DNA of 64,000 nt from Comamonadaceae bacterium. Its GTDB lineage: Bacteria; Pseudomonadota; Gammaproteobacteria; Burkholderiales; Burkholderiaceae_C. The stretch covers positions 1 through 64,000 of the forward strand of contig CANJPU010000024.1 in the NCBI GenBank assembly GCA_947476285.1, written 5' to 3'. The notes beneath the pieces were generated by a model. The model was not told the DNA's origin and ran no database searches. It saw nothing but the letters and a program-made list of their open reading frames with translations. Shown in pieces: positions 15,249 through 30,948 of the stretch. Every line of letters begins with the position of its first letter. Position 1 is the stretch's first letter. Both the position numbers and the translations under genes were made by a program.

Positions 15249-15790
15249 TGAGCGAGCCAGACGACCCGCTCAATGTAGCGCGCGAGCTGTCGGTGCCGCG
15301 CACGCCTGCGCAGGTGTGGCAGTTTGTCTGCGACATGGGCAACTGGGCTGGCCAGATGCCCGGCTATATCTCGCATGAACAACTGGGCCCCGACGATTCG
15401 GTCTGGACTTTGCAACTGAACATCGGGCCTTTCGAGCGGCCGGTCGCCATCGACGTGCACGTACTGCGCTGGGACGAGCCGCATCATGTGGATTTTGAAA
15501 TCAAGGGCAAGCACGATCCGTTTGTTGGTAGCGGCAAATTCAATTCGGTTCAAGAGGGCGACGCAACACGCATCGTGCTGGCGTTTCGCGCCGAACCCAC
15601 AGGGTCGATGGCCAGGGTACTGGCGCCTTTGATGCCGCCCATCCTGAACGAAGTGGCGGACCAGTTCAGCGCCAACCTCGCCAAGGTGCTGGGCCGCACC
15701 ACACCCGCCGCCGCAACCGATCAAGTGCCGCAGCGACGCGGCTTTTGGGCCTGGCTGATGCGCAAGCTTCTGCGCCGCAAGTCCGACTGA
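15248..15790 (+). CDS. SRPBCC / CoxG-like protein
   Basis: A 180-residue protein whose first 150 residues fit the START-like SRPBCC fold of the carbon monoxide dehydrogenase subunit G (CoxG) family: RELSVPRTPAQVWQFVCDM at the start and a long C-terminal helix. The end is basic (WLMRKLLRRKSD), which could bind membrane. Family members bind hydrophobic ligands or help load molybdenum enzymes; here no Mo enzyme is adjacent, so ligand binding seems likelier. The ATG overlaps the stop of the flavoprotein gene (TGATG), so the two are translationally coupled. Confidence 0.78.
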   Translation: MSEPDDPLNVARELSVPRTPAQVWQFVCDMGNWAGQMPGYISHEQLGPDDSVWTLQLNIGPFERPVAIDVHVLRWDEPHHVDFEIKGKHDPFVGSGKFNSVQEGDATRIVLAFRAEPTGSMARVLAPLMPPILNEVADQFSANLAKVLGRTTPAAATDQVPQRRGFWAWLMRKLLRRKSD

Positions 15791-15843
15791 GATTCACTTT
15801 CAAGCCACAGCATTCTTAGCTCACACCCACCGGAGAAGACACC

Positions 15844-16293
15844 ATGAAAGAAGAAATCGAAACCTACGTCACGCAGCACAAACTCTATGAAGAGGGATTC
15901 ACCGAAGAGTTTCTTGATGAGGCCTTGTCGAAAGTGCAGCAGCGGATGTTTGGTGACTGGCCGCTGTTTGGTGCCAAGGAAGCCTATGGCGATCATGATG
16001 CCAAGACCACGCAATACATCTTCGGGCAGATCTTCGGGCGGCCGGGGCTGGATCTGAAGACGCGCGGGCTGATGGTGCTGTCCTGCCTATGCATTTTGCA
16101 GCGCGAAGGCGTGATGCGCATCTGGACCAATGCCTGTCTGAACCTGGGCTGGACCGAAGCGCAGATCAAGGAGATGGGCATGCTGCTGGCACATGCGGGC
16201 GGCTTTCCCACCTCGCGTGGCGCGGTGGTGGTGTTCGACGACGTGTTCGAGCAACGCCGCGCCAACCCTGGCGCGAAATGGGCCGGTGCCTGA
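15844..16293 (+). CDS. Carboxymuconolactone decarboxylase family protein
   Basis: A 149-residue all-helical protein of the CMD/AhpD superfamily, with a good GGAGAAG before the ATG. It lacks the CxxC pair of AhpD peroxidase partners, so a redox role is unlikely. The decarboxylase or another small-molecule role is possible. The next gene is a second member of the same family, and the two may form a hetero-oligomer. Both belong to the run driven by the promoter at 13538. Confidence 0.8.
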   Translation: MKEEIETYVTQHKLYEEGFTEEFLDEALSKVQQRMFGDWPLFGAKEAYGDHDAKTTQYIFGQIFGRPGLDLKTRGLMVLSCLCILQREGVMRIWTNACLNLGWTEAQIKEMGMLLAHAGGFPTSRGAVVVFDDVFEQRRANPGAKWAGA

Positions 16294-16334
16294 GCGCACG
16301 TCAACACTGACTGATTGAAGCTATAGAGGCAAAC

Positions 16335-16733
16335 ATGAGCACACCATCGAATCGACTTTTTACCCAGGGCAAGGAACTGGCCGAGCAACTCTTTGGCAAT
16401 GCGCACGGCGATGTCGGCGACATTCCCATCGATCCCAAGGACGACCTGCCCGACGTGCTGGTGACTTGGCTGTTTGGCTATCTGCTCAAGGAGCGGACAC
16501 AACTGGATGTCAAGACCAAAGTCTTGTCATTGATCGCCATGTGCACAGCCACCAACCAGGAAGACATGCTGGAGCGCTGGATTCCCGCCGCCCGCAAGGC
16601 GGGCTGCACGCGGCTGGAGTTGCAGGAAACCATGGTCACCATGATGATCTATGCTGGCTGGCCGGCCGCGCGGCGTGGCCTCAATATCCTGGCCAGCCAG
16701 TGGCCTTTGAATCCCCAAGGAGACGACAAATGA
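16335..16733 (+). CDS. Carboxymuconolactone decarboxylase family protein (second copy)
   Basis: A 132-residue member of the CMD/AhpD superfamily, paralogous in layout to the preceding gene and likewise without a CxxC motif. The helix pattern DVKTKVLSLIAMCTATNQED followed by a helix ending in ARRGLNIL is typical. A GAGG ribosome site precedes the ATG. Its stop overlaps the start of the downstream cupin gene (ATGA). Its exact reaction is unknown; paired CMD proteins next to a cupin suggest decarboxylation or ring opening of a lactone-like intermediate, which is inference only. Confidence 0.8.
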   Translation: MSTPSNRLFTQGKELAEQLFGNAHGDVGDIPIDPKDDLPDVLVTWLFGYLLKERTQLDVKTKVLSLIAMCTATNQEDMLERWIPAARKAGCTRLELQETMVTMMIYAGWPAARRGLNILASQWPLNPQGDDK

Positions 16734-17113
16734 AGCTGCAAACCAGGGTGACCCATGCTGCGCCCGATGCGTCCGACTATGTGCCGGGCCTTCGCTCGTA
16801 TTTTCAATACCGGGACACGGGCATCAAGGACGCGACGGGTGGAATGTTCACCGCGCACGTGATCCGCGCGGTACCGGGCGAAGAGGTCATCCCCCAGTGG
16901 CACAGCCACAAAGCCAGCTTCCAGATGTTCTATGTGATTGCGGGTTGGGTTGACTTTGAATACGAAGACATCGGCCGAGTGCGCATGCTGCCAGGCTCAT
17001 CGGTGTATCAGCCGCCCGGTGTGATGCACAGAGAAATTGAGCACAGCGAAGACCTGGTGATTCTGGAAGTGGTGTCTCCAGCGGACTTCGCGACCGACCT
17101 GCCCAAAGAGTGA
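16730..17113 (+). CDS. Cupin-domain protein
   Basis: A 127-residue cupin with the metal-binding motif WHSHKASFQMFYVIAGW and a second half PGSSVYQPPGVMHREIEHS, giving three His and a possible Glu for metal. The start overlaps the stop of the CMD gene by four bases, and AAGGAG lies before it. Differs in sequence from the cupin at 12989. Small cupins next to CMD-family proteins occur in aromatic and lactone catabolism, but no substrate can be assigned. Last gene of this run. Confidence 0.8.
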   Translation: MKLQTRVTHAAPDASDYVPGLRSYFQYRDTGIKDATGGMFTAHVIRAVPGEEVIPQWHSHKASFQMFYVIAGWVDFEYEDIGRVRMLPGSSVYQPPGVMHREIEHSEDLVILEVVSPADFATDLPKE

Positions 17114-17126
17114 GGCGCAAGCGCCT
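17113..17126. terminator. Hairpin between convergent genes
   Basis: AGGCG-CAAG-CGCCT forms a five-base-pair stem with a tetraloop right at the stop of the cupin gene and before the convergent receptor stop. There is no T-run, so termination strength is doubtful. Confidence 0.3.
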
Positions 17127-17141
17127 GCTACCCGCTGCGCG

Positions 17142-18107
17142 TCAGTCGATCGGTTTCATATTCGCGTCGCGGAAGAGTTTCTTCCACTTCTCGATTTCTT
17201 CCTTGACCATCTCTGTGTGTCGCGCAGGGGTGGTGGTGGCCACTTCCACGCCGCGGCTGAGGATGAGTTCTTTCACGTCGGGCGCATTCAGAATGGCGCC
17301 TAGTTCGGCGCTGATTTTCTCGACGATGGCTTTGGGTGTACCGGCCGGTGCGAACAGCCATTGCTTGCCAACCGACTCGAAGCCGGGAATGCCGGACTCG
17401 GCAACGGTGGGCACGTCGGGCATCAGGGCGGTGCGCTGCTGGGAAGTGACCGCGATGGCACGCATGGCGCCGGCCTTGATGTGTGGACCCAGCGACGGAG
17501 GCGTGTCGAACATCGCATCGAGCCGGCCGGCCAGCAGGTCGACGATGGCCGGTGAGGGCGCCTTGTAGGGCACGCGATTGAATTGCACGCCGGACATCTG
17601 GCCCAGCAGGATGCCGGTGAGTTGTGATGCGGTGGCTGTGGAGCCCATTGAAATGGTGTTGGGTTTGGCCCGCGCCAGAGCAATGAATTCAGCGAATGTC
17701 TTGGCAGGCAGGTCATTGCGCACCACCAGCACGAAAGGCACCTGAGCCAATTGCGCAACCGGCTCGAAGTCTTTCACCGGGTCGTAATTTAGCTTGGTGT
17801 AGAAGCTCACGTTGATGCCGTGGCTGCCGTTGGAGCCCTGCAGAAAGGTGTAGCCGTCAGCCGGTGAGGTGGCGACAAACTGAGTGGCCACCGAGCCGCC
17901 CGCGCCGAGCTTGGATTCGACAAGCACGGGCTGGCCAAGACGCTGAGAGAGTTTTTCTGAGTAGATCCGGGCCACCATGTCGGTGCTGGTGCCGGCCCCG
18001 AAACCCAGGATGATTCGTATCGGGCGGTTGGGGTAGGCCTGCGCCAGTGCGGCAGCAGTCACGGCCAGGCCCAGCGCGGCGATCAGGCATTTGATGAAGT
18101 GTTTCAT
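17142..18107 (-). CDS. Bug/TctC-family periplasmic solute-binding receptor
   Basis: A 321-residue receptor: signal peptide ending near AALAQ, then YPNRPIRIILGFGAGTSTDM with the family ligand-loop Asp. It ends convergently with the cupin gene. The start ATG at 18107 is preceded by a GA-rich ribosome site; an upstream in-frame ATG would add ten residues before the signal peptide and is less likely. A strong sigma70 promoter match lies at 18225-18252. It probably binds a carboxylate used by the neighbouring CoA pathway; no permease genes accompany it. Confidence 0.9.
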   Translation of the reverse strand: MKHFIKCLIAALGLAVTAAALAQAYPNRPIRIILGFGAGTSTDMVARIYSEKLSQRLGQPVLVESKLGAGGSVATQFVATSPADGYTFLQGSNGSHGINVSFYTKLNYDPVKDFEPVAQLAQVPFVLVVRNDLPAKTFAEFIALARAKPNTISMGSTATASQLTGILLGQMSGVQFNRVPYKAPSPAIVDLLAGRLDAMFDTPPSLGPHIKAGAMRAIAVTSQQRTALMPDVPTVAESGIPGFESVGKQWLFAPAGTPKAIVEKISAELGAILNAPDVKELILSRGVEVATTTPARHTEMVKEEIEKWKKLFRDANMKPID

Positions 18108-18224
18108 GTGTGTCTCTCTCTCTTCATGTGTTGTCAACCACCCCGATGAGGCTGCCGTACGGGCGGGTCGGCCCGCACATACTGACCCACATTACACATG
18201 AATCTGCGTACGGATCAAGTGGGG

Positions 18225-18252
18225 ATTATGCCCCTGGGCTTGTCCCTGTCAA
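18225..18252 (-). promoter_or_regulatory. Sigma70 promoter for the Bug receptor gene
   Basis: Reading the minus strand, TTGACA (18252-18247), 16 bases, CATAAT (18230-18225). This is a near-consensus sigma70 promoter and would give a leader of about 110 bases before the ATG at 18107. Confidence 0.6.
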
Positions 18253-18286
18253 CGATTAATGAACAACGAGCCATAAATCATCTGGC

Positions 18287-18316
18287 TTGACCCCACACCG
18301 GCGTGGCGACCATAAT
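18287..18316 (+). promoter_or_regulatory. Sigma70 promoter for the hydratase / acyl-CoA dehydrogenase pair
   Basis: TTGACC (18287-18292), 18 bases, CATAAT (18311-18316), followed after a very short leader by GGGAGGA and the GTG start at 18341. The divergent gap 18108-18340 therefore holds two back-to-back promoters. Confidence 0.55.
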
Positions 18317-18340
18317 CGACTCTGCTTGGGAGGACCTTTA

Positions 18341-19141
18341 GTGCAAGCTTCCATACTGCTGAACAAGCAGCCCGATGGCGTGGCCACAATCACGCTCAAT
18401 CGCCCGGACAGGCTCAACGCCTTCAACCGGGACATGATCGTTCGCTGGCATGCTGCCTTGGTGGACGTCTTCGCCGACCCCGAAGTGCGGGTGGTGGTCA
18501 TCACCGGTGCGGGGCGCGCCTTTTGCGCCGGTGGCGACATCACCGAAGACTTGGCCGACATGCATGAGCTTGACAGCATGGCCCGCAAGAATTATTTGTG
18601 GGAGCATGTTCACAAGATCGTGATGGCGATCGACCGTGGCGACAAGCCGGTCATTGCTGCAGTCAACGGGCCGGCTCGCGGCGCGGGCATGGACATGACC
18701 CTGATGTGCGACATGCGCATCGCAGCGGCCTCGGCCAGTTTTGCGGAGAGCTACATCAACTTCGGGCTGATCGCTGGCGACGCAGGAACTTATTTTCTAC
18801 CGCGTCTGATCGGTGCGGCCCGCGCGCTGGAGTTGTTCTGGACCGGTCGCACGGTGTCGTCCGAAGAAGCCGAGCGCATTGGGCTGGTCAACCGCGTGGT
18901 GCCCGACGATGAGTTGCACGATGCGGTGATGCAGATGGCCCGGCAGATCGCGGGCCAGTCTTCAGAGGCGATTCGCATGTACAAGCGTGTGGTGTACCAA
19001 AGCCTCACCTTGCCCTTGATGACCCATCTGGACATGGTCTCATCGCATATGGCGGTGTTGGAAGACACCCCTGGGCACAAGCAGCGCATCGAGGCTTTCT
19101 TCCAGGAAAAAGCCAAGCGCGACGCGCTCAAGAAGAAATAA
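18341..19141 (+). CDS. Enoyl-CoA hydratase/isomerase family protein
   Basis: A 266-residue crotonase-fold protein with FCAGGDITED for the first oxyanion-hole element and GPARGAGMDMTLMCDMRIA for the second. The catalytic region reads INFGLIAGDAGTYFLPRLIG, with an Asp in place of the second catalytic Glu. Start is GTG at 18341, chosen for GGGAGGA at 18328-18334. Followed after 16 bases by an acyl-CoA dehydrogenase, giving two consecutive steps of beta-oxidation-like chemistry under one promoter. Confidence 0.88.
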   Translation: MQASILLNKQPDGVATITLNRPDRLNAFNRDMIVRWHAALVDVFADPEVRVVVITGAGRAFCAGGDITEDLADMHELDSMARKNYLWEHVHKIVMAIDRGDKPVIAAVNGPARGAGMDMTLMCDMRIAAASASFAESYINFGLIAGDAGTYFLPRLIGAARALELFWTGRTVSSEEAERIGLVNRVVPDDELHDAVMQMARQIAGQSSEAIRMYKRVVYQSLTLPLMTHLDMVSSHMAVLEDTPGHKQRIEAFFQEKAKRDALKKK

Positions 19142-19157
19142 ACCCCGAGAGAATCGC

Positions 19158-20318
19158 ATGCAGTATTGCCTGAACGAAGAACAAACCCAATTGCAGGATC
19201 TGATTCGACGCGTCTGCGCAGAGAAGGTCGCGGCCCGCGCCGCAGACATCGACCGCACGGCCGAGTACCCGCAGGATATGTTCGAGCTGCTGCAGAAACT
19301 GGATTTGTTCACCGTGCCTTTCTCCGCCGAATATGGCGGCACTGGCAGCGTGCTTTCGGCTTGCATCGCGGTCGAGGAATTCGGGCGCGTCTGCTACAAC
19401 ACGGGCGCACTGCTGGTGACGCAGTGGGTTCCCTTTGGCACCATTCTGGCTGGCGGCAGCCCTGAGCAGCAAAAGCGCTATTTGCCCGGCCTGGCAACCG
19501 GCGAGTTGCGCGGTGCCACATCGCTCACCGAAGCGCAGAGCGGATCGGATGTCTCGGGCATCAAGACCACGGCGCGGCGCACGGCCGATGGCTATGTGAT
19601 CAACGGCGCCAAGATGTGGTGCACCGGCTCGCTGGTAGCCGATTTCATCATGGTGGCTGCGCGCACGCTGGCCGAAGATGGCAAGCCTGTGGGCATCAAT
19701 TTTTTCATCGTCGAGCGCGGTGCGAAGGGTTTCACGGTGGGGCGCAAGGAAGAGAAGCTTGGCGCGCGCGGCATCAGCTCGCATCCGCTGTTCTTTGACA
19801 ATGTGCCGGTTGCTGAGACCGCGCGGCTCGGTCCCGAGGGCGGCGAAGGTTTCAAGCTGGCGATGGAGACGCTCAACAAGAGTCGCCCGATCATCGCGGC
19901 GCGGGCGGTGGGGCTGGCCCAGGGCGCCATGGACCACACCATCGAATTCATACGCAACCGCCGCGCCTTCGGTCACCAGATCAGCGATTTTCAGGGTGCA
20001 CGCTGGATGGTGTCCGACATGGCGATGAAGACCGAGGCGGCGCGCCAGCTTGTGTACCGGGCAGCGGCGATGGTCGACGCTGGCGTGAAGGGCTCTGTGC
20101 TGGCACCGCTGGCGGCGCAGGCTAAGTGCTATGCATCCGATGTGGCGATGCAGGTGGCCACCGATGCGGTGCAGCTCTTCGGGGCGGCGGGTATCTCAGG
20201 CGAGTATCCGATCAACCGCTACTTTCGCGATGCCAAGGTCATCCAGATCGTCGAGGGCACCAATCAGATTCAGCGCAACATCATTGCGGACAGTTTGTTG
20301 GGGCGGGTGAAAAAATAG
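19158..20318 (+). CDS. Acyl-CoA dehydrogenase
   Basis: A 386-residue FAD enzyme of normal length for the family, expected to form the alpha,beta double bond of an acyl-CoA and pass electrons to ETF. Visible landmarks are SLTEAQSGSDVSGIKT (FAD and substrate contact), MWCTGS, and the C-terminal IVEGTNQIQRNII with the catalytic-base Glu. It ends convergently with the DUF2894 gene. It likely works with the hydratase just upstream on the same promoter. Confidence 0.93.
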   Translation: MQYCLNEEQTQLQDLIRRVCAEKVAARAADIDRTAEYPQDMFELLQKLDLFTVPFSAEYGGTGSVLSACIAVEEFGRVCYNTGALLVTQWVPFGTILAGGSPEQQKRYLPGLATGELRGATSLTEAQSGSDVSGIKTTARRTADGYVINGAKMWCTGSLVADFIMVAARTLAEDGKPVGINFFIVERGAKGFTVGRKEEKLGARGISSHPLFFDNVPVAETARLGPEGGEGFKLAMETLNKSRPIIAARAVGLAQGAMDHTIEFIRNRRAFGHQISDFQGARWMVSDMAMKTEAARQLVYRAAAMVDAGVKGSVLAPLAAQAKCYASDVAMQVATDAVQLFGAAGISGEYPINRYFRDAKVIQIVEGTNQIQRNIIADSLLGRVKK

Positions 20319-20325
20319 CCCGCCC
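20301..20325. terminator. Hairpin at the end of the acyl-CoA dehydrogenase gene
   Basis: GGGCGGG (20301-20307), an 11-base A-rich loop, CCCGCCC (20319-20325): a perfect seven-base-pair GC stem that includes the stop codon. It may separate the convergent transcripts; on the minus strand the loop is T-rich. There is no T-run after the stem. Confidence 0.35.
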
Positions 20326-20340
20326 TTGATCAACAAAGCC

Positions 20341-21021
20341 TCATCTCTTTTGGCTGCGTTGTCGTGTCGATTTGGGTTTCGCCGCCTTGGTCTGGTATTG
20401 GGTGTTGGCAAGATCTAGCCACTGCAGCGAATCAACATGCGACAGAAACCGCCGCAGATAGTCAGGCGAGAGGCTGCGCATCAATTCCAGTGAGCGCAAC
20501 ACCAACATATGGGAGTTGAGTGGGCCGGCCTTGTCAGGCCCTAGGCCGACGGCCTGCGTCACCTGCTGCTGTGCAGACATTCTGGACCACGCATCTCTGA
20601 AGCGGCGCACGCTTTTCATCTCGGATGCGGCTTCGTCCCGGGTCCCCAGAGCGCTGCCCATGCCGGCGTGATTGTCCTTGTGCTTCACTTGCGCGAAGCG
20701 CAGATTCAGTTGGTTCAGCGGGGTGCGGGGCTGTTCAGGTGCAGATCGATTGGTCGGATTGCGCAACCCCTTGGCATCTTGCGTGTGCTTTGTTGCCAGG
20801 CTGGGCGTTTGCGTGCCAGCAGCCGTCTGCCTGCGCTCGAAGCGCTCAGCATAGTCGGACAAGGCGACTTTGAGTTTGCCTTCCAGGATGCACCGCACTG
20901 CATCGGGCTGCGTCTGAATGCGCCGCGACAACACTTCGATGTAACGAAATCGCACGGGGTCAAAATTTTGAGCGCCCGCTTCCCGCAAGGCCTCAAGCGC
21001 CGACAGGCCCTGTTCATTCAC
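20341..21021 (-). CDS. DUF2894-type protein, last gene of the motor-like operon
   Basis: A 226-residue protein that I match to the DUF2894 family from memory, with moderate certainty. The first 75 residues look helical, the middle is a low-complexity Pro/Gln/Thr-rich linker, a second helical block runs to about 200 and the end is very basic (KPKSTRQRSQKR). No signal peptide, membrane segment or known catalytic motif is visible, so it is probably cytoplasmic and may bind nucleic acid or membrane with its basic tail. Its start overlaps the OmpA-like gene by eight bases, implying obligate co-expression. Confidence 0.75.
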   Translation of the reverse strand: MNEQGLSALEALREAGAQNFDPVRFRYIEVLSRRIQTQPDAVRCILEGKLKVALSDYAERFERRQTAAGTQTPSLATKHTQDAKGLRNPTNRSAPEQPRTPLNQLNLRFAQVKHKDNHAGMGSALGTRDEAASEMKSVRRFRDAWSRMSAQQQVTQAVGLGPDKAGPLNSHMLVLRSLELMRSLSPDYLRRFLSHVDSLQWLDLANTQYQTKAAKPKSTRQRSQKR

Positions 21022-21667
21022 GCAAGGAGCCCTTCGCGTTGCTGGACTTGGGCACCGGCGCCATTTCCACGCGCCGGTTCAATGCCCGCCCCTTTTCATT
21101 TGCGTTGGACGCCACCGGCTGCTCCGAGCCAAAAGCAGCACCAAACACGCGGGACGACGACATGCCTTCTTCGATCAAGGCGCGGGTCACCGTCAGGGCG
21201 CGCTGGGCTGATAGTTCCAGGTTGTCCTCAAAGCGTTGATTGCCCTCGCGGATGGGTTTGTCGTCGGTAAAGCCGCTCACCATCAACATTTGATCGCGCT
21301 CGCCCAGGTACACCTGCAGTGGGGGCACGAGGCTCTTCAGAAGCAAGCGGCCATCGGGGCGCAACTGATCCGAATTCACCGGGAACAACAGACTGCCGCT
21401 GATGCCAATGCGTCCATTGTTCAGTGTGATGCGGCCGCTCGCCAGCGGAATCGCCAGGGCCTTCTCCAGGGCCATGCGGCGCTGTTCCTCAAGGCGCCGC
21501 TTGGCAACCTCAGATTCCAGGCTGGCCATCAGATCCATTTGCACTGCCAGCACCCCGACCAGGACCAGCACGAATGCACCCAGCAAGCCAGCCATCAAGT
21601 CCCCGAACACCGTCCAGATCGGGGCATGGTACTCGACGCCGTCGCCGCCCTCGTCAAGCTCGGTCAT
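21014..21667 (-). CDS. OmpA/MotB-like stator protein (ZorB-like)
   Basis: A 217-residue protein. A single membrane helix at about 22-43 begins with FGDLMAGLL, where Asp23 sits as the ion-carrying Asp does in MotB and ZorB (D-LM-x-GLM pattern). A short charged helix follows, then an OmpA-like peptidoglycan-binding domain from about 85 to 200 (VSGFTDDKP, LSAQRALTVTRALI, NRRVEM). It should anchor an ion channel to the cell wall. The start overlaps the end of the MotA-like gene by four bases (ATGA), as expected for an obligate channel pair. Confidence 0.85.
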   Translation of the reverse strand: MTELDEGGDGVEYHAPIWTVFGDLMAGLLGAFVLVLVGVLAVQMDLMASLESEVAKRRLEEQRRMALEKALAIPLASGRITLNNGRIGISGSLLFPVNSDQLRPDGRLLLKSLVPPLQVYLGERDQMLMVSGFTDDKPIREGNQRFEDNLELSAQRALTVTRALIEEGMSSSRVFGAAFGSEQPVASNANEKGRALNRRVEMAPVPKSSNAKGSLRE

Positions 21668-23616
21668 CCGGCGACTTCCTGCGCCATTGCCTGTTGCCCG
21701 GTGTGCAACCGGCGCAGGTCTTCGATGATGCCTTGCTGAGAGGAGATGCTGAGGTCGATGACCTCACGCGCCTGGGCCACGTAGTAGGCGAGTTGTTCGT
21801 CGCTGCGCGCCAAGGACTGCTGCGCGGCGCCCTCGATCCGCTGCAGGCTTTCCATCAGCTTCTCGTTGCTCGCGGTGAATAGCTGCACGCCATGGTTGAA
21901 AGCTTCGCCCAGGCTTGATAGCTCGATGGCGCTGCCGGTGACTTGCGCCGCCACCTCCTGGGTGCGAGTTGACTGCGCGCCCAGCTCTTGCGAAAACTGG
22001 CGACTGGCCTTGTCCAACACCTCTGCCGCCGACGCGACCAGTGACTCAATCGCGGCGCGCTGCGCGTCCGCGCTCTGGTGAACGGTCTGCAGCAGTGTGC
22101 TGACTTTCTCGCCAAGGACAACGCGCTCTTGCAAGGCGAGATTGTCGCGTTCGGTCAAGTGGCTCATTTCCAGGCGCAGTTGCGCAATCACCTCGGCCGC
22201 TGCCCGGGGTACTTCAGAGGCGGTATGCAGCAGCCGGTTCAGCGGCGTCTCCAGCGCGGCGCCCAGTGTGGCCAGGTGGCTTGCCACGGCGGCCTGCAGC
22301 TCGTCCAGGCGGTCCACTGCGGCTTGGCCGCGCCCGGCCTCATCCTGCCTGAGCTTGGCGAGTTCGGTGCGCCACAGTGTGCTTAGTTGGTCCATGCGCT
22401 CGCCATGCTGCTGGGTCAGGCTGGCCTCGGCCTCGGTGCGCGAGCGAACCAGTTCTTCGGATCGGTTCAAGAGCCGGGCAATTTCTGCGATCGTGCGTTC
22501 GGCCTGATGGCTGGCGTGTTCGGTGACTTTGCTGGCGGTCCTCTCCAGCGTCTCGCAGGTGGCTAGCTGCCGCGCCAGCGTCTGCTCCCCCACTTGCTGC
22601 CATTGCTTGTGCAGCGTGGCGGCCATGGCGTTGGTGCTGACACTGAACTGGCCTGCCAAGCCATCCAACTGCGCTTGCACCGCATCGCGCACTCGCTCGT
22701 GCATGCGCCGTGAGTCTTCCGCGATGGCTGTCATCGCGGACTCCACCACGGGCTTGATGCTCTCGCCAGCCAGCCTCGCGCTCTGCATCAAGGTGTCTTT
22801 TAGCGACTGCTCCACGGCGCGGGCCAGATCGGTGTAGGCGACGGTTACGTTGCGGTGGAAGTCTGCCTGCCGGGCGAGCAATCGCTCGTCCTGTTGCTGG
22901 CTGCGGCGTTCCAATTGTTCGATCAGCGCCTGCAGCTTGTCAGCTACATCGGGCAGGGCATGGGCCTGCAACTGCAGCGCCTTGAATGTTTCCTCGCGCT
23001 GGTGGACATGCGAGAAGGGCCGCAACACGGTGCTGATGCGGATGTCCAACTGCCGCGAGGCATCCATCCGCTCGCGTCGGCAGATGGCCGACATCAGCCC
23101 AAGCATTGCCGATGAAGCCACCCCGGCCACGGAGGTGCCGAAGGCCAGACCCAATCCCTGTATGGGCGCCGCCAGCGCCGAGCGCACCGCTTGAAGATCG
23201 GCCGAGCCCTCCAGCGCGAACACGGCTCCCTTGAAAGTCACCACCATACCCAGGAAGGTGCCGAGCATGCCCAGCATCACCAGCAGCCCAACCAGGTAAG
23301 GCGTGAGCGCAAGGCTGGGCAGTGCAGCCCTCTCACCCTCGATCCTGCGGCGCACGCTGGTGTGAAGGGAGGGATGCAGGCTGCCAAGCCAATCGCCGAT
23401 GTTCGAGAGTGGATCCGGAATGTTGGCCAGCGTGCTCGCCAGTGAAGACGTGACGGCACGAAACCGCTTGATCTCCAACGCGCCTACCAAATAGACCGCG
23501 CCAATGACGATGGTCATGGCCAGGGCTGACCAGTTTGAGCCGACAAAGCCCACGCCCACCCACAGGACGGATATCAGGCCCAAGGCAAAGGCCGCCGCCA
23601 AACTAATTCTGTTCAT
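21664..23616 (-). CDS. Long-tailed MotA/ExbB-like channel protein (ZorA-like, DUF802)
   Basis: A 650-residue protein with four membrane helices at about 5-25, 30-48, 104-127 and 150-178. The third and fourth carry LGMLGTFLGM and LAFGTSVAGVASS, with Thr120 and Thr161 placed like the pore Thr/Ser of ExbB and MotA. Residues 185-650 form one long, almost wholly helical, Gln/Ala/Glu-rich tail. This layout (channel plus a cytoplasmic tail of several hundred residues) is that of ZorA rather than of ordinary MotA or TolQ. The tail seems to match the DUF802 family. Flanked by an OmpA-like partner, DUF3348 and DUF2894. Confidence 0.82.
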   Translation of the reverse strand: MNRISLAAAFALGLISVLWVGVGFVGSNWSALAMTIVIGAVYLVGALEIKRFRAVTSSLASTLANIPDPLSNIGDWLGSLHPSLHTSVRRRIEGERAALPSLALTPYLVGLLVMLGMLGTFLGMVVTFKGAVFALEGSADLQAVRSALAAPIQGLGLAFGTSVAGVASSAMLGLMSAICRRERMDASRQLDIRISTVLRPFSHVHQREETFKALQLQAHALPDVADKLQALIEQLERRSQQQDERLLARQADFHRNVTVAYTDLARAVEQSLKDTLMQSARLAGESIKPVVESAMTAIAEDSRRMHERVRDAVQAQLDGLAGQFSVSTNAMAATLHKQWQQVGEQTLARQLATCETLERTASKVTEHASHQAERTIAEIARLLNRSEELVRSRTEAEASLTQQHGERMDQLSTLWRTELAKLRQDEAGRGQAAVDRLDELQAAVASHLATLGAALETPLNRLLHTASEVPRAAAEVIAQLRLEMSHLTERDNLALQERVVLGEKVSTLLQTVHQSADAQRAAIESLVASAAEVLDKASRQFSQELGAQSTRTQEVAAQVTGSAIELSSLGEAFNHGVQLFTASNEKLMESLQRIEGAAQQSLARSDEQLAYYVAQAREVIDLSISSQQGIIEDLRRLHTGQQAMAQEVAG

Positions 23617-23618
23617 TC

Positions 23619-24332
23619 TTATTTCTTGATTTCGTTGAACGCTTCAATCATTCCCACAACCGGCTCCAAGCGAACGTCCAGCTCTGCCAGCAGGGCCTCA
23701 CGCCATTCTTTGCCAAAGACCTCCAGCCATTGCGCCGTCCGCGCAGGCGCATCGGGCTCGTGCTTGTGCTGATCGCGCAAGTCTTTGAATCGTCGTTGAA
23801 GCAGCACAGGCACCGTGGCCAGCAATTGTTGCTGCCGCTCATCGAGCATTTGCTCCATCACGGCATCCAGGACAGCCAGTTGTGCAAGCGCTGGCGAGAC
23901 CTTTGAAATTATTTGCCGCACATGGTCACGCAATGCGTGAATCATCGATGCCATGTTGCGTTGCTGGTGGAGATAACGCTCGTGATACGGTGCGTATTCA
24001 TTCGCCATTTCAGAGGTTGCCTGCGGCTCTGGTGCGTGGGTCCTGGCTCGGGACAACTCGCTCGTTGTGATGGCGCCTACCAGAGCATCTTGCACCCGGT
24101 GGAATTCTTCTTGCACCGCGAAGGCTCTCACCGACCGCGCAGCCGATGGCCTGGCGCTGCCCGCTGACTTGATCGACTGGTGCGCCGCATGCAGCGTGAT
24201 GGCATCGGACACACCCACCCACTGACCCAATCGTTCCGCAAAATTCTGTCTAGACGCCCGCGCATCCACAGGCGCCCAATCACTGAGCATGCGAACCAGT
24301 CTGGAGCTGTTGAACTCATTGCGCAAATGCAT
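23619..24332 (-). CDS. DUF3348-type protein, first gene of the motor-like operon
   Basis: A 237-residue, mostly helical protein that I match to DUF3348 with moderate certainty. It begins SSRLVRMLSDWAPVDARASR and ends in helices rich in Leu, Gln and Glu (MEQMLDERQQQLLATVPVLL). No signal peptide, membrane helix or catalytic motif is visible; it is probably a cytoplasmic partner of the motor. Its stop lies two bases before the channel gene start, so all four genes are one transcript. The upstream gap of about 100 bases to the CoA transferase gene must contain the promoter; no consensus boxes stand out. Confidence 0.75.
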   Translation of the reverse strand: MHLRNEFNSSRLVRMLSDWAPVDARASRQNFAERLGQWVGVSDAITLHAAHQSIKSAGSARPSAARSVRAFAVQEEFHRVQDALVGAITTSELSRARTHAPEPQATSEMANEYAPYHERYLHQQRNMASMIHALRDHVRQIISKVSPALAQLAVLDAVMEQMLDERQQQLLATVPVLLQRRFKDLRDQHKHEPDAPARTAQWLEVFGKEWREALLAELDVRLEPVVGMIEAFNEIKK

Positions 24333-24435
24333 ACCTTGGCTCCCACAGAGGGGGTCATAGAAATTTCTGAAAGTCCGTGGCGGTTAACTGGGGCCTTGTT
24401 CCGGCACGCAGGGTGCATGGAAAAAGCAGTTCGAC

Positions 24436-25650
24436 TCAATTGCTTCGTTGGATTGCCGCGCCCGAGTCGATCAACCCGTCGATGCTTTGCGCATCGAAGC
24501 CGGCCTCTTGCAATATCTCGCGGGTGTGCTGTCCCAGGCGGGGCGGCACACCGATCGCACCATCGCGATGATCAAAGCGCAAAGGCGGACGCGGCATGCG
24601 CAGCGAGCCCATGTCTTTGTCGTGCACTGTCTTGAAAAATCCGGTGGCGCGAAGATGCGGATCGTCCTGCAGATCTTCCATCAGGTTCAGGCGCGAGGCG
24701 GGAATGTCCAGCCGATCGCACATCTCAAGCCAATCGGCGCAAGTGCGTTGCAGGACGGTCTCGCCCAGGATGGCATAGAGCTCTTCGATGTGGCGGGTGC
24801 GGGAGGTCATGCCGATGAAGCGCGGGTCAGTGACAAGCTGCGCGCGGCCTGCTTGCTCCAGAAAGTTCTTCCAGTGCAGATCGGTATAGGGCATGAGGCA
24901 GATGTAGCCATCCAGCGTTTTGAAAGGCCGGCGCCACGGGGTGAGTAAACGCTCGTAGCCCGGCAGGCCCAGCGGCGGCTCGAAATGCGCGCCCCAGCCG
25001 TGCTCCACCCAATTGAACCCGGCCATGACTTCCAGCATGGGGACTTCCACGTAGCAGCCTTTGCCATCACGCGCCCGGCTCACCAGCGCCATCAGCACTG
25101 CCTGCGCGGCATACAGGCCGCAGGTCTTGTCCGCCATGGCAAAGGGCATGTAGGCGGGCTCGCCACCCACGCGCAGCGCCATGCCGGCCATGCCGCTCAG
25201 GCCTTGAATGATGTCGTCGTAGGCGGGCTTGCCCGAATAGGGGCCGCCTTCGGCAAAACCATACGCGGCCACCACGATCAAGCGCGGGTTCCTGGCCATC
25301 AGCACGTCGGGCCCCAGGCCCAGACCGGTCATCTTCTGCGGACGCATCGCGTGGATGAGCACGTCCGCGTCATCCACCAGGCGCAGCAAGGCCGCGCGTG
25401 CGCTGTCTTGCTTGAGGTCGAGCACGATGCTGCGTTTGCAGCGGTTGGTGCCGATGAAAAGCGCACCCATACCCGCCTCGGTGGTCGGGCCGGTCTTGCG
25501 GGTGGAATCACCACCAGGCGCCTCCACCTTCACAATGTCAGCACCATAGTCACCCATGATCTGGGTGGCGTAGGGGCCAGCCAGCACGGAGGTCAGGTCA
25601 AGAACGCGAATGCCTTGCAGCGGGCGGGCGGGGGTGTGTGGGTCTTGCAT
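24436..25650 (-). CDS. Family III CoA transferase (CaiB/Frc)
   Basis: A 404-residue enzyme that moves CoA between carboxylic acids through a covalent acyl-aspartate. The N-terminal IRVLDLTSVLAGPYATQ and GADIVKVEAPGGDSTR are diagnostic, and Asp174 in MADKTCG aligns with the catalytic Asp169 of formyl-CoA transferase. Full length for the family. It is read in the same direction as the motor-like operon but separated from it by 104 bases. Donor and acceptor acids are unknown. An alternative CoA-activation step for this region next to the acyl-CoA ligase at 4812. Confidence 0.92.
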   Translation of the reverse strand: MQDPHTPARPLQGIRVLDLTSVLAGPYATQIMGDYGADIVKVEAPGGDSTRKTGPTTEAGMGALFIGTNRCKRSIVLDLKQDSARAALLRLVDDADVLIHAMRPQKMTGLGLGPDVLMARNPRLIVVAAYGFAEGGPYSGKPAYDDIIQGLSGMAGMALRVGGEPAYMPFAMADKTCGLYAAQAVLMALVSRARDGKGCYVEVPMLEVMAGFNWVEHGWGAHFEPPLGLPGYERLLTPWRRPFKTLDGYICLMPYTDLHWKNFLEQAGRAQLVTDPRFIGMTSRTRHIEELYAILGETVLQRTCADWLEMCDRLDIPASRLNLMEDLQDDPHLRATGFFKTVHDKDMGSLRMPRPPLRFDHRDGAIGVPPRLGQHTREILQEAGFDAQSIDGLIDSGAAIQRSN

Positions 25651-25864
25651 CGTGGGTGATCGGGGCCTGTGTCGGCGCGTGCTGCAGGCTCACCGTGGGT
25701 GGGCCTGCGTGCTTCGAGGGTTCGAAAGCGGTTAGTGCATTATAAAAGCTGCCTGCTGTGCATGACTCGCTCGGTGGGCCCGGCCTTGGCGGCACGCGCC
25801 GTGCCCGCGAAAATCCTATATTCTGCGCAATCCCCCTTCTTTTCCAACCGCGGGCTTTCGCACC
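25651..25864. promoter_or_regulatory. Divergent promoter region
   Basis: A 214-bp gap between divergent genes. A perfect TATAAT reads on the minus strand at 25744-25739 toward the CoA transferase, but its -35 is poor. TATATT at 25817-25822 on the plus strand fits a -10 for the aldo/keto reductase, again without a clear -35. No gene is visible. Confidence 0.35.
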
Positions 25865-26926
25865 ATGAACAAGATCCTGCTCGGTCAGAGCGATTTGTCG
25901 GTCACTCCCATTTGCCTGGGCACCATGGTCTTTGGCCAGCAGGTGGATGAGGCGACGTCTCATGCCATTCTTGATCAATCCTTGGCACGCGGCGTGAACT
26001 TCATCGACACCGCCGAAATGTATGCGGTGCCGTCGCGTGAGCAGACCTACGGCGTCACCGAGCGCATCATCGGCAACTGGTTTGCCAGCCGTCCCGGTGC
26101 GCGTGCGAAGGTGGTGCTGGCCACCAAGGCGGCAGGGCCATCGCGCGGCATGCCATGGGTGCGCGAAGGCAATGGCTTGACGGGGCGCGACATCATCGCT
26201 TCGTGCGAGGCGTCGCTCAAGCGTTTGCGTACCGACGTGATCGACCTCTATCAAATTCATTGGCCCGAGCGCAATGTGCCGATGTTCGGACAGATGTATT
26301 TCGATCCGACCCAAGAGCGCACTCAGACATCCATCCTGGAGCAACTGCAGGCACTGGGCCAACTGGTTCAGCAAGGCAAGGTTCGCCACATCGGCCTTTC
26401 CAATGAAACGCCTTATGGTGTGCATGAGTTCGTGCACCTGGCCCAGCAACACAATCTGCCTCGCATCGCCACCGTTCAAAACCCCTACTGCCTGATCAGT
26501 CGCGCGGTGGAAAACGGGCTCGACGAAACGCTGTACCGCTTGAAGGTGTCATTGTTGGCCTATTCACCGCTGGGCTTTGGCTTGTTGACCGGCAAGTACG
26601 ACACATCGGGTACGACTGGCCCCGATGCGCCGAAGAATGCGCGCATCGCGCTGTTCGAGTCGGTGCGCAAGCAGCGTTGGGGCCGGCCGAAGTCGCTGGA
26701 AACCGCGCGCCGCTACAACGCGCTGGCGCGTGCCAACGACTTGACTCCCACTCGCATGGCCCTGGCCTGGTGCTACACCAAATGGCAGGTGGGCAGCACC
26801 ATCGTCGGTGTGACGTCGCTGGCCCAACTCAATGAGAACCTCGACGCCTGGGGCACGCAACTGTCGCCAGAGCTGCTGGCGCAGATCGATCAGATCCGCC
26901 AGGAAGTGCGCGACCCAGCCCACTGA
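25865..26926 (+). CDS. Aldo/keto reductase (Tas-like)
   Basis: A 353-residue NADPH-dependent carbonyl reductase with a TIM-barrel fold. The catalytic tetrad is visible: Asp48 and Tyr53 in FIDTAEMY, Lys88 in VLATKAAG and His132 in YQIHWPER. The long insert after the His and the overall length match the Tas / YghZ-like group rather than the shorter plant-type reductases. C-terminal residues AWCYTKWQVGSTIVG place the cofactor phosphate. The physiological carbonyl is unknown. A single gene with its own upstream region. Confidence 0.92.
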   Translation: MNKILLGQSDLSVTPICLGTMVFGQQVDEATSHAILDQSLARGVNFIDTAEMYAVPSREQTYGVTERIIGNWFASRPGARAKVVLATKAAGPSRGMPWVREGNGLTGRDIIASCEASLKRLRTDVIDLYQIHWPERNVPMFGQMYFDPTQERTQTSILEQLQALGQLVQQGKVRHIGLSNETPYGVHEFVHLAQQHNLPRIATVQNPYCLISRAVENGLDETLYRLKVSLLAYSPLGFGLLTGKYDTSGTTGPDAPKNARIALFESVRKQRWGRPKSLETARRYNALARANDLTPTRMALAWCYTKWQVGSTIVGVTSLAQLNENLDAWGTQLSPELLAQIDQIRQEVRDPAH

Positions 26927-27027
26927 AAAGCTGCGGCGCTGCGTACTGGCAGAATGGAGCCGGTCGGGCTTGCTCATCCATCGTGATGGGCAAGCTGACG
27001 GCAACATCGTTCTTTTCGGAGTCACGC

Positions 27028-27657
27028 TTGGAACTGCTTTATTCCCTTATTGCCGGGGTGCTGGCCTACCTGGCGGGCTCGGTCGCCTTCGCTGTCGTCG
27101 TCAGCCGTGTCATGGGTCTGAAGGACCCACGCACCTTTGGCAGCAAGAACCCGGGCGCGACCAATGTGCTGCGTTCGGGCAGCAAGGCCGCCGCTATCGT
27201 CACGCTGCTGCTCGATGCAGTCAAGGGCATGGTGCCGGTGCTGCTGGTCAAGTGGCTGGGCAAGCCCTATGGCCTGGAGGACGGCACCATTGCTTTGGTG
27301 GGCCTGGCTGCATTTCTCGGTCATCTCTGGCCGGTGTTTTTCAGGTTTCACGGCGGCAAGGGCGTGGCCACCTTCATCGGTGTGGTGTTCGGCATCGACT
27401 GGATGCTGGGCGTGGCCACCTGTGTCACCTGGCTCATCCTGGCTTTCTTCACACGTTACGCATCACTGGCATCCCTGGTGGCCGGGGTGTTCGCGCCTGC
27501 GTTCTACCTGATGGGCGATCGGGTGCAGTGGTATGCCGAGACGCCCATTGCGCTGGCACTGGCCGCCATGGCGATGCTGCTGGCCTGGCGCCACAAGGCC
27601 AATATCGACCGGCTGCTCAAGGGCACTGAGTCGCGCATCGGCGCTGCAAAGACCTGA
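27028..27657 (+). CDS. plsY: Acyl-phosphate glycerol-3-phosphate acyltransferase
   Basis: A 209-residue membrane enzyme making lysophosphatidic acid from acyl-phosphate and glycerol 3-phosphate. Three conserved cytoplasmic motifs are present: GSVAFAVVVSR near the start, GSKNPGATNVLR, and GHLWPVFFRFHGGKGVAT. About five membrane helices. I choose TTG 27028, with CGGAG at 27017-27021, because it places the first helix at the normal position; GTG 26983 or ATG 26986 would add about 15 residues. An essential phospholipid gene, thus a marker of chromosomal core. Confidence 0.92.
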   Translation: MELLYSLIAGVLAYLAGSVAFAVVVSRVMGLKDPRTFGSKNPGATNVLRSGSKAAAIVTLLLDAVKGMVPVLLVKWLGKPYGLEDGTIALVGLAAFLGHLWPVFFRFHGGKGVATFIGVVFGIDWMLGVATCVTWLILAFFTRYASLASLVAGVFAPAFYLMGDRVQWYAETPIALALAAMAMLLAWRHKANIDRLLKGTESRIGAAKT

Positions 27658-27675
27658 CCTTGACCTGATGCTGAA

Positions 27676-27691
27676 CTGAGGTTGGCCTCAG
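27676..27691. terminator. Hairpin between plsY and the convergent MFS gene
   Basis: CTGAGG-TTGG-CCTCAG: a six-base-pair perfect stem with a tetraloop lies just after plsY and covers the stop of the MFS gene. It could serve both strands, though no T-run follows. Confidence 0.4.
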
Positions 27692-29295
27692 CGGTCCACC
27701 ACGTAGCGGGTGACCACTGGCGGCTCATCTCCGATGTGATAGGCCAGCTTGCGTTCGCGCACCTGTACATCGGCGGCGGTGACACGGTCGAAGCGGCGCA
27801 AGTGCTCAGTCCAGGATTCGTCGGTGATCTGCTCGATGATGCGGCCCGGTTCGTACAAGTCCTGCATCACTTGCCAGTCCAGCACGCCGTGGCCCATGCG
27901 GCTGCGCCGACTCTCCTGCATCAGCGCCATGAACTCATCCACCCGCGCCGGGTCAATGCGGTATTCGATGCTCACCTGGATGCGTCCGGGCCGCGGCGGT
28001 GCCTCAGCCAGAGGCGAGCGCAGCACGCCACGCGCCGGCGTCAGGTCTTCTTCGATGCCCCAGTCCACTGTCATGCGCTGGGCGACGATCATCGTCACCA
28101 CGCTGGAGATGGCGGCAATCGACAGGCTATCGTGGATGTTGGTCCAGGTGGCCACCTGTCCCCACAGCGCAGCGCCGGCCGCGGTGGCACCCATCAGACT
28201 CATCTGATAGATGGACATGCCGCGCGCCCTGACCCAGTCTGGCAATGACATCTGCGCGCGCACCGCCAGCGAGTTGGCCAGGCTGATCCATGCCATGCCC
28301 GCTATGAACATCGCGGGCACCATCACATAGATGCTGGGCGCCCAGGCCACCATCAGCATGGCTGTTCCCTGCAGGGCAGTGGCCACCATCAGCAGCGCCT
28401 TGAAGGACAGGACCTGCCGCAGGCGCGGCATCTGCAAGGCGGCAAAGATCGATCCCACCCCCATTGCAGCCAGCAGCAGCGTGAAGGTGCCGGCATTGCC
28501 GCCGGGCATGCTGCGCGCCACCAGTGGCAGCAGTGCCAGCAAGGCGGTGAAGTGAAAGAAGCACAGTGAGATCAGGGTGATCACCACCCGCATGCGGCGC
28601 GACTGCCAGACGAACTGCACGCCCACCCGCATGGCGCTTGGCAGACGCTCGCGGCCCAGCGGGCTGGGCTTGTGCTCGCGGCGCCAGAAGATCACCGCAA
28701 TGGCCGCCGCCACCGACAGCACCGCGTTGAGCGCGAACACCCAGGCGCTGCCGACGCTGGCGATGATGGCCCCAGCCATCAGCGGCCCCACAATGCGCGA
28801 GACATTCATGCCGATGCCGTTGAGCGCCATGGCGGCGGGCAGTTGCGAGCGGGGCACCAGCTCGGGCACGGTGGCCGCGAAGACGGGCCAGCGCATCGCC
28901 AGCCCCACCCCGTTGGCGAAGGTCAGGGCCAGCAGCAGGGGCGGGGTCATCCAGCCCATCATCACGGTCAGGCTGATCAGGCAGGCAATGCCCGCAGCCC
29001 AGAACTGGGTGACGATCAGATAGCGCCGCCTGTCCAGTGTGTCGGCCAGCGCGCCGCTGGGCAGACCCAGCAGGAACACCGGCAGAGTGGAGGCCGACTG
29101 CACCAGCGCCACCATCAGCGGCGAATCGCTCAGCGATGTCATCAGCCAGGCGCTGCCCACATCGTTCATCCACATTGTGGTGTTGGCTGCCAGCCAGGTC
29201 AGCCACAACAGGCGGTACATGGGAATGCGCAGAGGCACCAGTGCCGCAATCATGCCCGCGCGGGGTGGCGGTGGCTTGCTCAACGGGTCGACCAT
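27688..29295 (-). CDS. MFS exporter of the EntS-like group with a C-terminal extra domain
   Basis: A 535-residue transporter. About twelve membrane segments fill residues 30-410, with GALADTLDRRRYL as motif A, as in the enterobactin-exporter (MFS_3) group. The last 110 residues are soluble (IQVSIEYRIDPARVDEFMAL, then MQDLYEPGRIIEQI) and look like a small ferredoxin-like domain of the antibiotic-biosynthesis-monooxygenase type; this MFS plus ABM fusion is known in Proteobacteria. I take ATG 29295 because the preceding codons are not protein-like. Likely exports a small molecule; substrate unknown. Confidence 0.87.
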   Translation of the reverse strand: MVDPLSKPPPPRAGMIAALVPLRIPMYRLLWLTWLAANTTMWMNDVGSAWLMTSLSDSPLMVALVQSASTLPVFLLGLPSGALADTLDRRRYLIVTQFWAAGIACLISLTVMMGWMTPPLLLALTFANGVGLAMRWPVFAATVPELVPRSQLPAAMALNGIGMNVSRIVGPLMAGAIIASVGSAWVFALNAVLSVAAAIAVIFWRREHKPSPLGRERLPSAMRVGVQFVWQSRRMRVVITLISLCFFHFTALLALLPLVARSMPGGNAGTFTLLLAAMGVGSIFAALQMPRLRQVLSFKALLMVATALQGTAMLMVAWAPSIYVMVPAMFIAGMAWISLANSLAVRAQMSLPDWVRARGMSIYQMSLMGATAAGAALWGQVATWTNIHDSLSIAAISSVVTMIVAQRMTVDWGIEEDLTPARGVLRSPLAEAPPRPGRIQVSIEYRIDPARVDEFMALMQESRRSRMGHGVLDWQVMQDLYEPGRIIEQITDESWTEHLRRFDRVTAADVQVRERKLAYHIGDEPPVVTRYVVDR

Positions 29296-29317
29296 GTCCG
29301 GCGAACGGGGTGCAGGC

Positions 29318-29803
29318 TCAATCGCGGAAGTTGTTGAAGGACACAGGCACGTCAGTGATGTCCTTGCGCACCAGGGCCATCGCAGCCTGCAGGTCATCGC
29401 GCTTGGCGCCGCTCACTCGCACTGCGTCGCCCTGTATGGCCGCCTGCACCTTGAGCTTGCTGTCCTTGATGAGGCGGGTGATCTTCTTGGCCATCTCGGA
29501 TTCGATGCCGTTGCGCACCTTCATCACCAGCTTGACTTTGTCGCCGCCAATCTTTTGCAGCTCGCCTTTGTCCAGAAAACGCACGTCCACACTGCGCTTG
29601 ACGAGTTTGGCGGTCAGGATGTCCTCGACCTGGGCAATCTGGAACTGGGCGTCGCCAAAGAGCGTGATCTCTTTGTCCTTTAGCTCCAACGCGGCGGATG
29701 TGCCCTTGAAATCGAAGCGCGTGGCGATCTCCTTGGCGGCGTTGTCCACGGCGTTTTTCACCTCCACCATATTGGGTTCGCAGACTGTGTCAAAGGAGGG
29801 CAT
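29318..29803 (-). CDS. yajQ: YajQ family nucleotide-binding protein
   Basis: A 161-residue protein with the two ferredoxin-like domains of YajQ. It starts [20 protein letters not shown] and ends FNNFRD, both highly conserved. Family members bind cyclic di-GMP in some bacteria, or tRNA/GTP according to other reports, and act as regulators. Divergent from murB with a 45-base gap, an arrangement usual in Burkholderiales. Confidence 0.95.
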
Positions 29804-29848
29804 GGATGATTCTCGAAATAGATATTGTGCAGATGCGACAATTCTCCC

Positions 29849-30889: not shown

Positions 30890-30934
30890 GGCCCTGATTG
30901 CCTATGTGGGCCGATCAGTGCCCGGATGCGGCAG

Positions 30935-30948
30935 AATGTGCGTACATT
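30935..30948. promoter_or_regulatory. Likely GntR operator upstream of its own gene
   Basis: AATGTGCGTACATT is an almost perfect palindrome about 85 bases before the GntR gene. It matches TGTACGTACA at 45186-45195, in the promoter of the large operon, in nine of ten central positions. A TATATT that could be the -10 box of the regulator lies at 30972-30977, so the palindrome would overlap or precede its -35. Confidence 0.6.

What the first reader, a model, noticed from the sequence alone, without database searches (positions are those of the whole stretch)
20341..24332. Zorya-like ion-driven motor with two uncharacterised partners
Four overlapping or abutting genes encode DUF3348, a four-helix MotA/ExbB-like channel with a 465-residue helical tail, an OmpA/MotB-like partner with a membrane Asp (Asp23 in FGDLMAGLL), and DUF2894. 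Channel plus long tail plus wall anchor is the ZorAB layout of Zorya anti-phage defence. The usual ZorC/D or ZorE effectors are absent; two small proteins without known function take their place, one ending in a strongly basic tail. This could be a new class of signal-transmitting motor used in defence or in envelope surveillance. Against defence: no other defence gene is nearby and the flanks look like ordinary metabolism.
Basis: partly seen in the sequence, partly recalled or inferred. Interest (0 to 1): 0.87.

Follow-up and report, generated by a model that had tools for sequence, protein, structure and literature searches.

The report
Zorya type III anti-phage motor operon
Four adjacent genes encode a membrane ion-driven motor with a long inner tail and two helper proteins; this is a member of an already described bacterial phage-defence system (Zorya type III), and comparing relatives points to a strongly conserved tail tip as the likely place where the helpers dock.

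Summary
In detail: four tightly packed minus-strand genes (24332-20341) encode DUF3348, a MotA-like channel with a long tail, an OmpA/MotB-like partner with Asp23, and DUF2894. "New class" is wrong: this is a complete Zorya type III operon. PADLOC models match all four proteins (ZorA3 1.6e-245, ZorB3 1.6e-105), and Payne 2021 named the type and showed protection in E. coli (PMC8565338). Gene order is the same in 113 of 113 loci holding all four genes. It is patchy: 30 of 60 genomes of the genus, against 55 of 59 for murB. Its neighbours differ: 5 of 210 genome pairs share one, against 193 of 210 around murB. No defence island was seen. Worth following: ZorA ends in a tip almost as conserved as the channel (loose motif 110 of 112, strict 75 of 112), joined to it by a spacer of very variable length. 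I propose that the tip docks DUF3348/DUF2894, which are all-helical without a solved-fold match. How type III stops phage remains open.

The parts
23619..24332 (-). DUF3348 protein, 237 aa (ZorF in Payne 2021 and Mariano 2025; labelled ZorG in PADLOC-DB)
   Evidence: PF11828 2e-67; PADLOC PDLC00658 2.9e-72; AlphaFold2 model all-helical, mean pLDDT 87.5, no PDB match at E<=0.001
21664..23616 (-). ZorA3: MotA/ExbB-like channel (residues ~1-190, four helices by eye) with a long cytoplasmic tail (about 465 residues), 650 aa
   Evidence: PADLOC PDLC00648 1.6e-245; T120, S162 and S169 invariant in 36 of 36 aligned; profile matches the solved type I ZorA chain 8vvn_C, 1.9e-4
21739..21813 (-). ZorA3 C-terminal tip, residues 602-626, holding SDEQLAYYVAQAREVIDLS; proposed docking site
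   Evidence: loose motif YYVxQA[RK][ED] in 110 of 112 intact ZorA, strict motif in 75 of 112; window residues 601-625 mean conservation 0.89, against 0.95 (101-125) and 0.91 (151-175) in the channel
22267..22641 (-). ZorA3 variable spacer, about residues 326-450 (missing from part of the homologues)
   Evidence: occupancy 0.69-0.86, conservation 0.39-0.51; DUF802 best stretches at about residues 320-380 in 6 of 8 relatives, none in the window protein
21014..21667 (-). ZorB3: one membrane helix with Asp23, then OmpA-type peptidoglycan-binding domain, 217 aa
   Evidence: PADLOC PDLC00651 1.6e-105; PF00691 4.4e-15; Asp23 invariant in 32 of 32 aligned and 117 of 117 by motif
20341..21021 (-). DUF2894 protein, 226 aa, strongly basic end (ZorG in Payne 2021 and Mariano 2025; labelled ZorF in PADLOC-DB)
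   Evidence: PF11445 2.8e-56; PADLOC PDLC00652 2e-61; net charge +15, last 25 residues +6; model all-helical, confident in the N-terminal 70 residues, pTM 0.42

Best explanation
This is a complete Zorya type III anti-phage operon. ZorA and ZorB form an inner-membrane ion-driven motor of the MotAB kind (5:2 by homology, not modelled here), with Asp23 of ZorB and the conserved Thr/Ser of ZorA as the ion path (conservation shown; ion flow inferred). When phage entry disturbs the envelope, the ZorB OmpA domain grips peptidoglycan, the channel opens and the ZorA tail turns or changes shape (inferred from types I and II). In type III the tail is a variable-length stalk ending in an almost invariant tip (shown). 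I propose that the tip holds or releases the two all-helical partners, DUF3348 and the basic DUF2894, and that DUF2894 contacts nucleic acid, or the acidic ZorA tail, at the entry site (inferred). No nuclease was recognised in the operon (at this sensitivity), so the last step is either blocking or packing of incoming DNA, a host nuclease recruited by the partners, or loss of the ion gradient.
For: Family: PADLOC hits for all four proteins; same gene order in 113 of 113 loci with all four genes. Activity of the type: a Stenotrophomonas nitritireducens type III operon lowered plaquing in E. coli for at least one phage and protected liquid cultures from PVP-SE1 at low MOI (Payne 2021, passages). 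Motor: Asp23 117 of 117; T120, S162 and S169 invariant in 36 of 36; profile match to type I ZorA 8vvn_C; [quoted passage not shown] Tip. Operon genes stay together: distance correlations among them 0.67-0.78, against 0.25-0.35 (weaker, though all p<0.005) with murB. Partners change fast: mean distance about 0.50-0.53, ZorA core 0.35, ZorB 0.24, murB 0.17. Accessory distribution: 26 of 45 good genomes of the genus, against 41 of 44 for murB; shared neighbours in 5 of 210 genome pairs against 193 of 210.
Against: No defence-specific gene among 130 neighbours from 39 loci (one generic RtcR-like regulator matched; no positive control was run); no phage record with DUF3348, no viral contig with ZorB (close relatives only), and only large replicons (366 kb to 3.5 Mb) among 27 plasmid records. 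By contrast Zorya II is often in defence islands (preprint PMC13192584, passages). In B. cenocepacia K56-2 no predicted defence system changed fitness in a CRISPRi screen with phage Bcep176, though the first one or two genes of Zorya III changed in transcription (PMC12584637, passages). The ZorAB tree clusters by genus, so transfer is mostly between close relatives. Type III protection in print, as far as I saw, comes from expression in E. coli. The docking role of the tip and any DNA contact of DUF2894 are untested.
Confidence: 0.75

Rival explanations
1. The motor serves an ordinary envelope task (for instance sensing or mending cell-wall stress), and the phage protection seen in E. coli is a by-product of expression from a plasmid.
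For: No defence gene among 130 neighbours, not found in the phage or viral collections, plasmid hits only on large replicons; shown as highly conserved in R. solanacearum (PMC13064858); no fitness effect in one native phage screen (PMC12584637).
Against: Patchy within a genus and rarely with the same neighbours, unlike a housekeeping envelope system; partners diverge fast; direct protection reported for one operon.
Confidence: 0.15
2. Type III works by opening the channel and collapsing the ion gradient of infected cells (abortive infection), with DUF3348 and DUF2894 only as gate regulators.
For: No nuclease domain and no solved-fold match for the two partners; Payne 2021 proposes that they regulate ZorAB.
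Against: Types I and II are thought to act through nuclease partners gathered by the motor (PMC11890865); a pure leak does not by itself explain a conserved tail tip.
Confidence: 0.25
3. An unlinked nuclease or other host effector is recruited by DUF3348/DUF2894.
For: Operon without a recognised effector; [quoted passage not shown]
Against: No recurring fifth neighbour: no Pfam family in more than 4 of 130 flanking proteins; protection was seen in E. coli with the cloned type III system, so the effector would have to be common to distant hosts.
Confidence: 0.25

Closest known systems
Zorya type III (Payne et al. 2021; ZorA3-ZorB3-ZorF-ZorG)
   Same: All four families, gene order and tight packing; each protein matches its PADLOC model strongly.
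   Different: Nothing found that sets this copy apart; its ZorA (650 aa) is at the shorter end of the range 452-1056 and shows no DUF802 match.
Zorya types I and II
   Same: MotA-like ZorA with long tail and MotB-like ZorB with membrane Asp and OmpA domain; weaker PADLOC ZorA1/ZorB1 matches (3.2e-9, 1e-16).
   Different: No ZorC, ZorD or ZorE among the window proteins scanned; ZorA length varies widely in type III, while component size is reported as well conserved within types I and II.
Flagellar stators MotAB/PomAB and ExbBD/TolQR
   Same: Channel family and ion path by homology; ZorB domain resembles MotB structures (3khn 5.4e-12).
   Different: Long tail and two extra partners; MotA_ExbB Pfam score below cut-off.

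Membership tests
Zorya type III | ZorA3 channel with long cytoplasmic tail | tested here: met
   PDLC00648 1.6e-245
Zorya type III | ZorB3 with membrane Asp and OmpA domain | tested here: met
   PDLC00651 1.6e-105; Asp23 117 of 117
Zorya type III | DUF3348 and DUF2894 genes flanking zorAB | tested here: met
   order in 113 of 113 loci with all four
Zorya type III | Protection against phage | not testable with these tools
   Shown for another member in E. coli (PMC8565338)
Zorya type III | ZorA5B2 stoichiometry | not testable with these tools
   Single-chain prediction only; 5:2 shown for types I and II
Zorya type I | ZorC and ZorD | tested here: not met
   None at 1e-10 among 54 of the 56 other genes called in the window, nor in the operon; the rest of the genome was not searched
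Zorya type II | ZorE HNH nickase | tested here: not met
   None at 1e-10 among 54 of the 56 other genes called in the window, nor in the operon; the rest of the genome was not searched
Flagellar stator (MotAB) | Pfam MotA_ExbB over cut-off | tested here: not met
   15.1 bits against cut-off 22.9

The most novel reading that the evidence does not exclude
Type III Zorya is a motor weapon without a nuclease. A stalk of freely varying length (292-885 residues between channel motif and tip) carries an almost invariant tip, which upon motor activation hands over or reshapes two helical proteins, one strongly basic, that act on incoming phage DNA or on the channel itself. Stalk length would then be a natural series for asking how far torque or a signal travels.
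Probability: 0.3. Interest if true: 0.65.

Novelty: new member of a known kind. Interest (0 to 1): 0.33.

Why it matters
The system itself is catalogued, so the locus adds one member. What may be of use: the papers I saw solve or dissect types I and II, and leave type III without a mechanism. The comparison gives testable handles: an almost invariant ZorA tip, natural stalks from short to very long, and two fast-evolving helical partners without a recognised nuclease. The distribution (patchy, with changing neighbours, yet without defence genes beside it in the loci examined) also raises the question whether defence is its only job.

Tried and rejected
New class of motor: rejected, PADLOC names all four proteins. 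Universal locus: rejected for this genus, though shown as highly conserved in R. solanacearum.

Window's flanks as an ancestral site: in 40 loci (20 kb or less each) relatives of the flanking acyl-CoA dehydrogenase or CoA-transferase appear in only 4 (L030, L046, L048, L051), at 25-33% identity and not next to the operon; TctC-type receptors like the window's third neighbour appear in 13 of 40 at 30-44% identity, a family I recall as very numerous in these bacteria, and below the 45% I required for a shared neighbour. Genus searches with the two flanking proteins (read by eye): in G344, G352 and elsewhere in the window's own genome (contig C40) relatives of both lie side by side without the operon, but those CoA-transferases are only 44-47% identical and none has the window's facing arrangement, so no empty site is claimed.

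Foreign origin of the window's copy: the quick tree put it outside the main Ramlibacter group, but trees that join it to that group, or to two Polaromonas-like rows, scored higher than the free quick tree (AU p 0.71 and 0.88), so its place is unresolved. The tree clusters by genus (9 changes against 25.5 in shuffles, 51 of 103 rows counted).

Fold matches for DUF3348 and DUF2894: none at E<=0.001. Unit length in the stalk: weak signal near 50-52 residues (0.18 against about 0.13 expected; 8.0 and 3.5 scored the same), not claimed. Helical periodicity in the tail: not above shuffles. Fused DUF2894 in L041: the open frame of 1826 codons is mostly a masked run, not a shown fusion. Promoter and terminator scan no better than shuffles; no Rfam match, no tRNA. 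Fifth operon gene: no recurring neighbour family (which shows only the 25 commonest of 127 families, so single transposase or integrase neighbours could be hidden). A literature search for the letters ZorG returned Dutch health-care papers.

Rows left out: L079, L085 and L090 (judged repeats of L038, L030 and L035 from shared flanks and contig lengths) are out but; frames cut by contig ends or masked are out of the length and motif counts; 130 of 157 chosen flanking proteins (39 of 40 loci) went into; 54 of 56 other window genes into; 65 of 105 DUF3348 and 65 of 79 DUF2894 relatives, plus the window, into the models. Genes in flanks were called by my own simple script.

Full report
Observation. 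Pfam recognises DUF3348 (2e-67), OmpA (4.4e-15) and DUF2894 (2.8e-56); the channel scores below Pfam's MotA_ExbB cut-off. DUF802 is not detected in this ZorA.

Identity. PADLOC-DB matches all four as Zorya type III: ZorA3 1.6e-245, ZorB3 1.6e-105, DUF2894 2e-61, DUF3348 2.9e-72. Payne et al. 2021 (PMC8565338, passages) report 6,401 such gene sets, name them Zorya type III, and find that a Stenotrophomonas nitritireducens system lowers plaquing in E. coli for at least one phage and protects cultures at low MOI. Mariano et al. 2025 (PMC11890865; abstract, section 6 part 1 of 2, section 10 and passages) solved types I and II as 5:2 complexes and list type III with DUF3348 as ZorF and DUF2894 as ZorG. 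PADLOC-DB 2.0.0 uses the two letters the other way round.

Motor. Asp23 is invariant in 32 aligned ZorB, and F[GA]DLM is present in 117 of 117. In 36 aligned ZorA the residues T120, S162 and S169 are invariant. The ZorA profile finds type I ZorA 8vvn_C (1.9e-4) with the GTF and TSV motifs aligned. ZorB resembles MotB domains (3khn 5.4e-12).

Operon. In 120 loci (40 from the genome search, 80 from genome contigs, where the best 80 of 549 were kept; three look like repeats of genomes held twice) all four genes were found in 113, always in the same order. In six of the other seven the contig ends within zorA or less than 0.8 kb upstream of the called frame. The seventh, L122, has 2.5 kb upstream in which no DUF3348 was found.

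ZorA tail. Among 103 ZorA with a normal N-terminus lengths run from 452 to 1056. Mean conservation by window residue is 0.95 (101-125) and 0.91 (151-175) in the channel, falls to 0.39-0.51 at 326-450 (occupancy down to 0.69), and rises to 0.89 at 601-625. Of 112 intact ZorA, 110 carry the loose tip motif, 75 a stricter 17-residue motif and 62 the exact 20-residue string; the two without the loose motif are L051 (a frame that runs into ZorB) and L109 (one residue off). In the 101 rows that carry both anchors, 18 of the 20 positions of RSDEQLAYYVAQAREvIDLS are at 0.95 or more; over 34 residues the tip averages 0.82, channel helix 3 0.90 and a stretch of spacer 0.39 (rows were chosen by the motifs, which nearly all carry). 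The distance from channel motif to tip runs from 292 to 885. DUF802 matches lie in the spacer of 6 of 8 relatives scanned, with up to six stretches (L063). The passages of Payne and Mariano that I read do not mention such a tip, and 'tail length' and 'C-terminal tip' do not occur in Mariano's main text; I did not search the literature for it more widely.

Partners. AlphaFold2 models from 66-row alignments: DUF3348 all-helical (pLDDT 87.5, pTM 0.84), DUF2894 all-helical with a weak overall arrangement (pLDDT 78.1, pTM 0.42). Foldseek against the PDB gives nothing at E<=0.001 for either. DUF2894 is basic (median net +9, window +15; last 25 residues +5 or more in 88 of 116), ZorA acidic (median -15, window -10). 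Between 20-21 genomes of the genus, distances of the four genes correlate with each other at 0.67-0.78 and with murB at 0.25-0.35, the latter weaker but all above chance. So the four genes travel together, partly apart from the species.

Distribution. Family sample: DUF3348 in 87 of 299 genomes; class sample: 8 of 369. Genus: ZorA in 30 of 60 (26 of 45 of good quality); murB in 55 of 59 (41 of 44); both counts include the window's genome. With five neighbours on each side in 21 genomes, 5 of 210 pairs share a neighbour around the operon against 193 of 210 around murB. A first pass with seven on each side gave 10 of 325 pairs in 26 loci. The ZorAB tree nevertheless clusters by genus, so movement seems to be mostly among close relatives.

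Surroundings. Of 130 flanking proteins from 39 loci (157 were chosen from 40) none matched a defence-specific PADLOC model at 1e-15; one generic RtcR-like regulator did. No positive control was run. Among 54 other window proteins PADLOC gave matches at 1e-10 that look generic to me (mad3, mad8, RtcR-like, AriA). Plasmids: 27 of 72,556 records with ZorB, 366 kb to 3.5 Mb. Phages: none with DUF3348. IMG/VR: none with ZorB, a search that reaches close relatives only.

Function. Protection has been shown for the type in E. coli. Against: in B. cenocepacia K56-2 no predicted defence system changed fitness in a CRISPRi screen with one phage, though the first one or two genes of Zorya III changed in transcription (PMC12584637, passages). 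R. solanacearum type III Zorya is shown as an example of a highly conserved system (PMC13064858, legend and passages). A review (PMC12904381, passages) describes the type I model: ZorB binding to peptidoglycan, motor activation, recruitment of ZorC and ZorD. A preprint places Zorya II often in defence islands (PMC13192584, passages). So defence is the best reading, but a second role is not excluded.

Verdict. Ordinary in kind, well supported in identity. The tip-plus-variable-stalk layout is the part worth following up.

Noticed in passing
window 20341-24332 (naming): PADLOC-DB 2.0.0 labels DUF3348 as ZorG and DUF2894 as ZorF, while Payne 2021 and Mariano 2025 call them ZorF and ZorG. Any transfer of results by letter will mix them up.
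   Followed up: yes
L035 and L052 (both genome G344): One genome carries two type III operons on different contigs; its listed contamination is 9%, so a second organism is possible.
   Followed up: no
L122: ZorA-ZorB-DUF2894 without a DUF3348 found in the 2.5 kb upstream, and a long branch in the tree; could be a three-gene form or a decayed one.
   Followed up: partly
L082: A record titled Pseudotabrizicola (Paracoccaceae) holds an operon that sits among Hydrogenophaga rows in the tree; more likely a misplaced contig in a metagenome bin than a transfer.
   Followed up: no
window 29825-30886: The murB ORF begins at TTG, while several relatives show a stop inside the match with an open frame of 351 aa, so the true start is probably a few codons further in.
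   Followed up: no
window 15000-31000: G+C of the operon (0.60-0.65) is like its flanks (0.60-0.67), giving no sign of recent foreign origin.
   Followed up: partly
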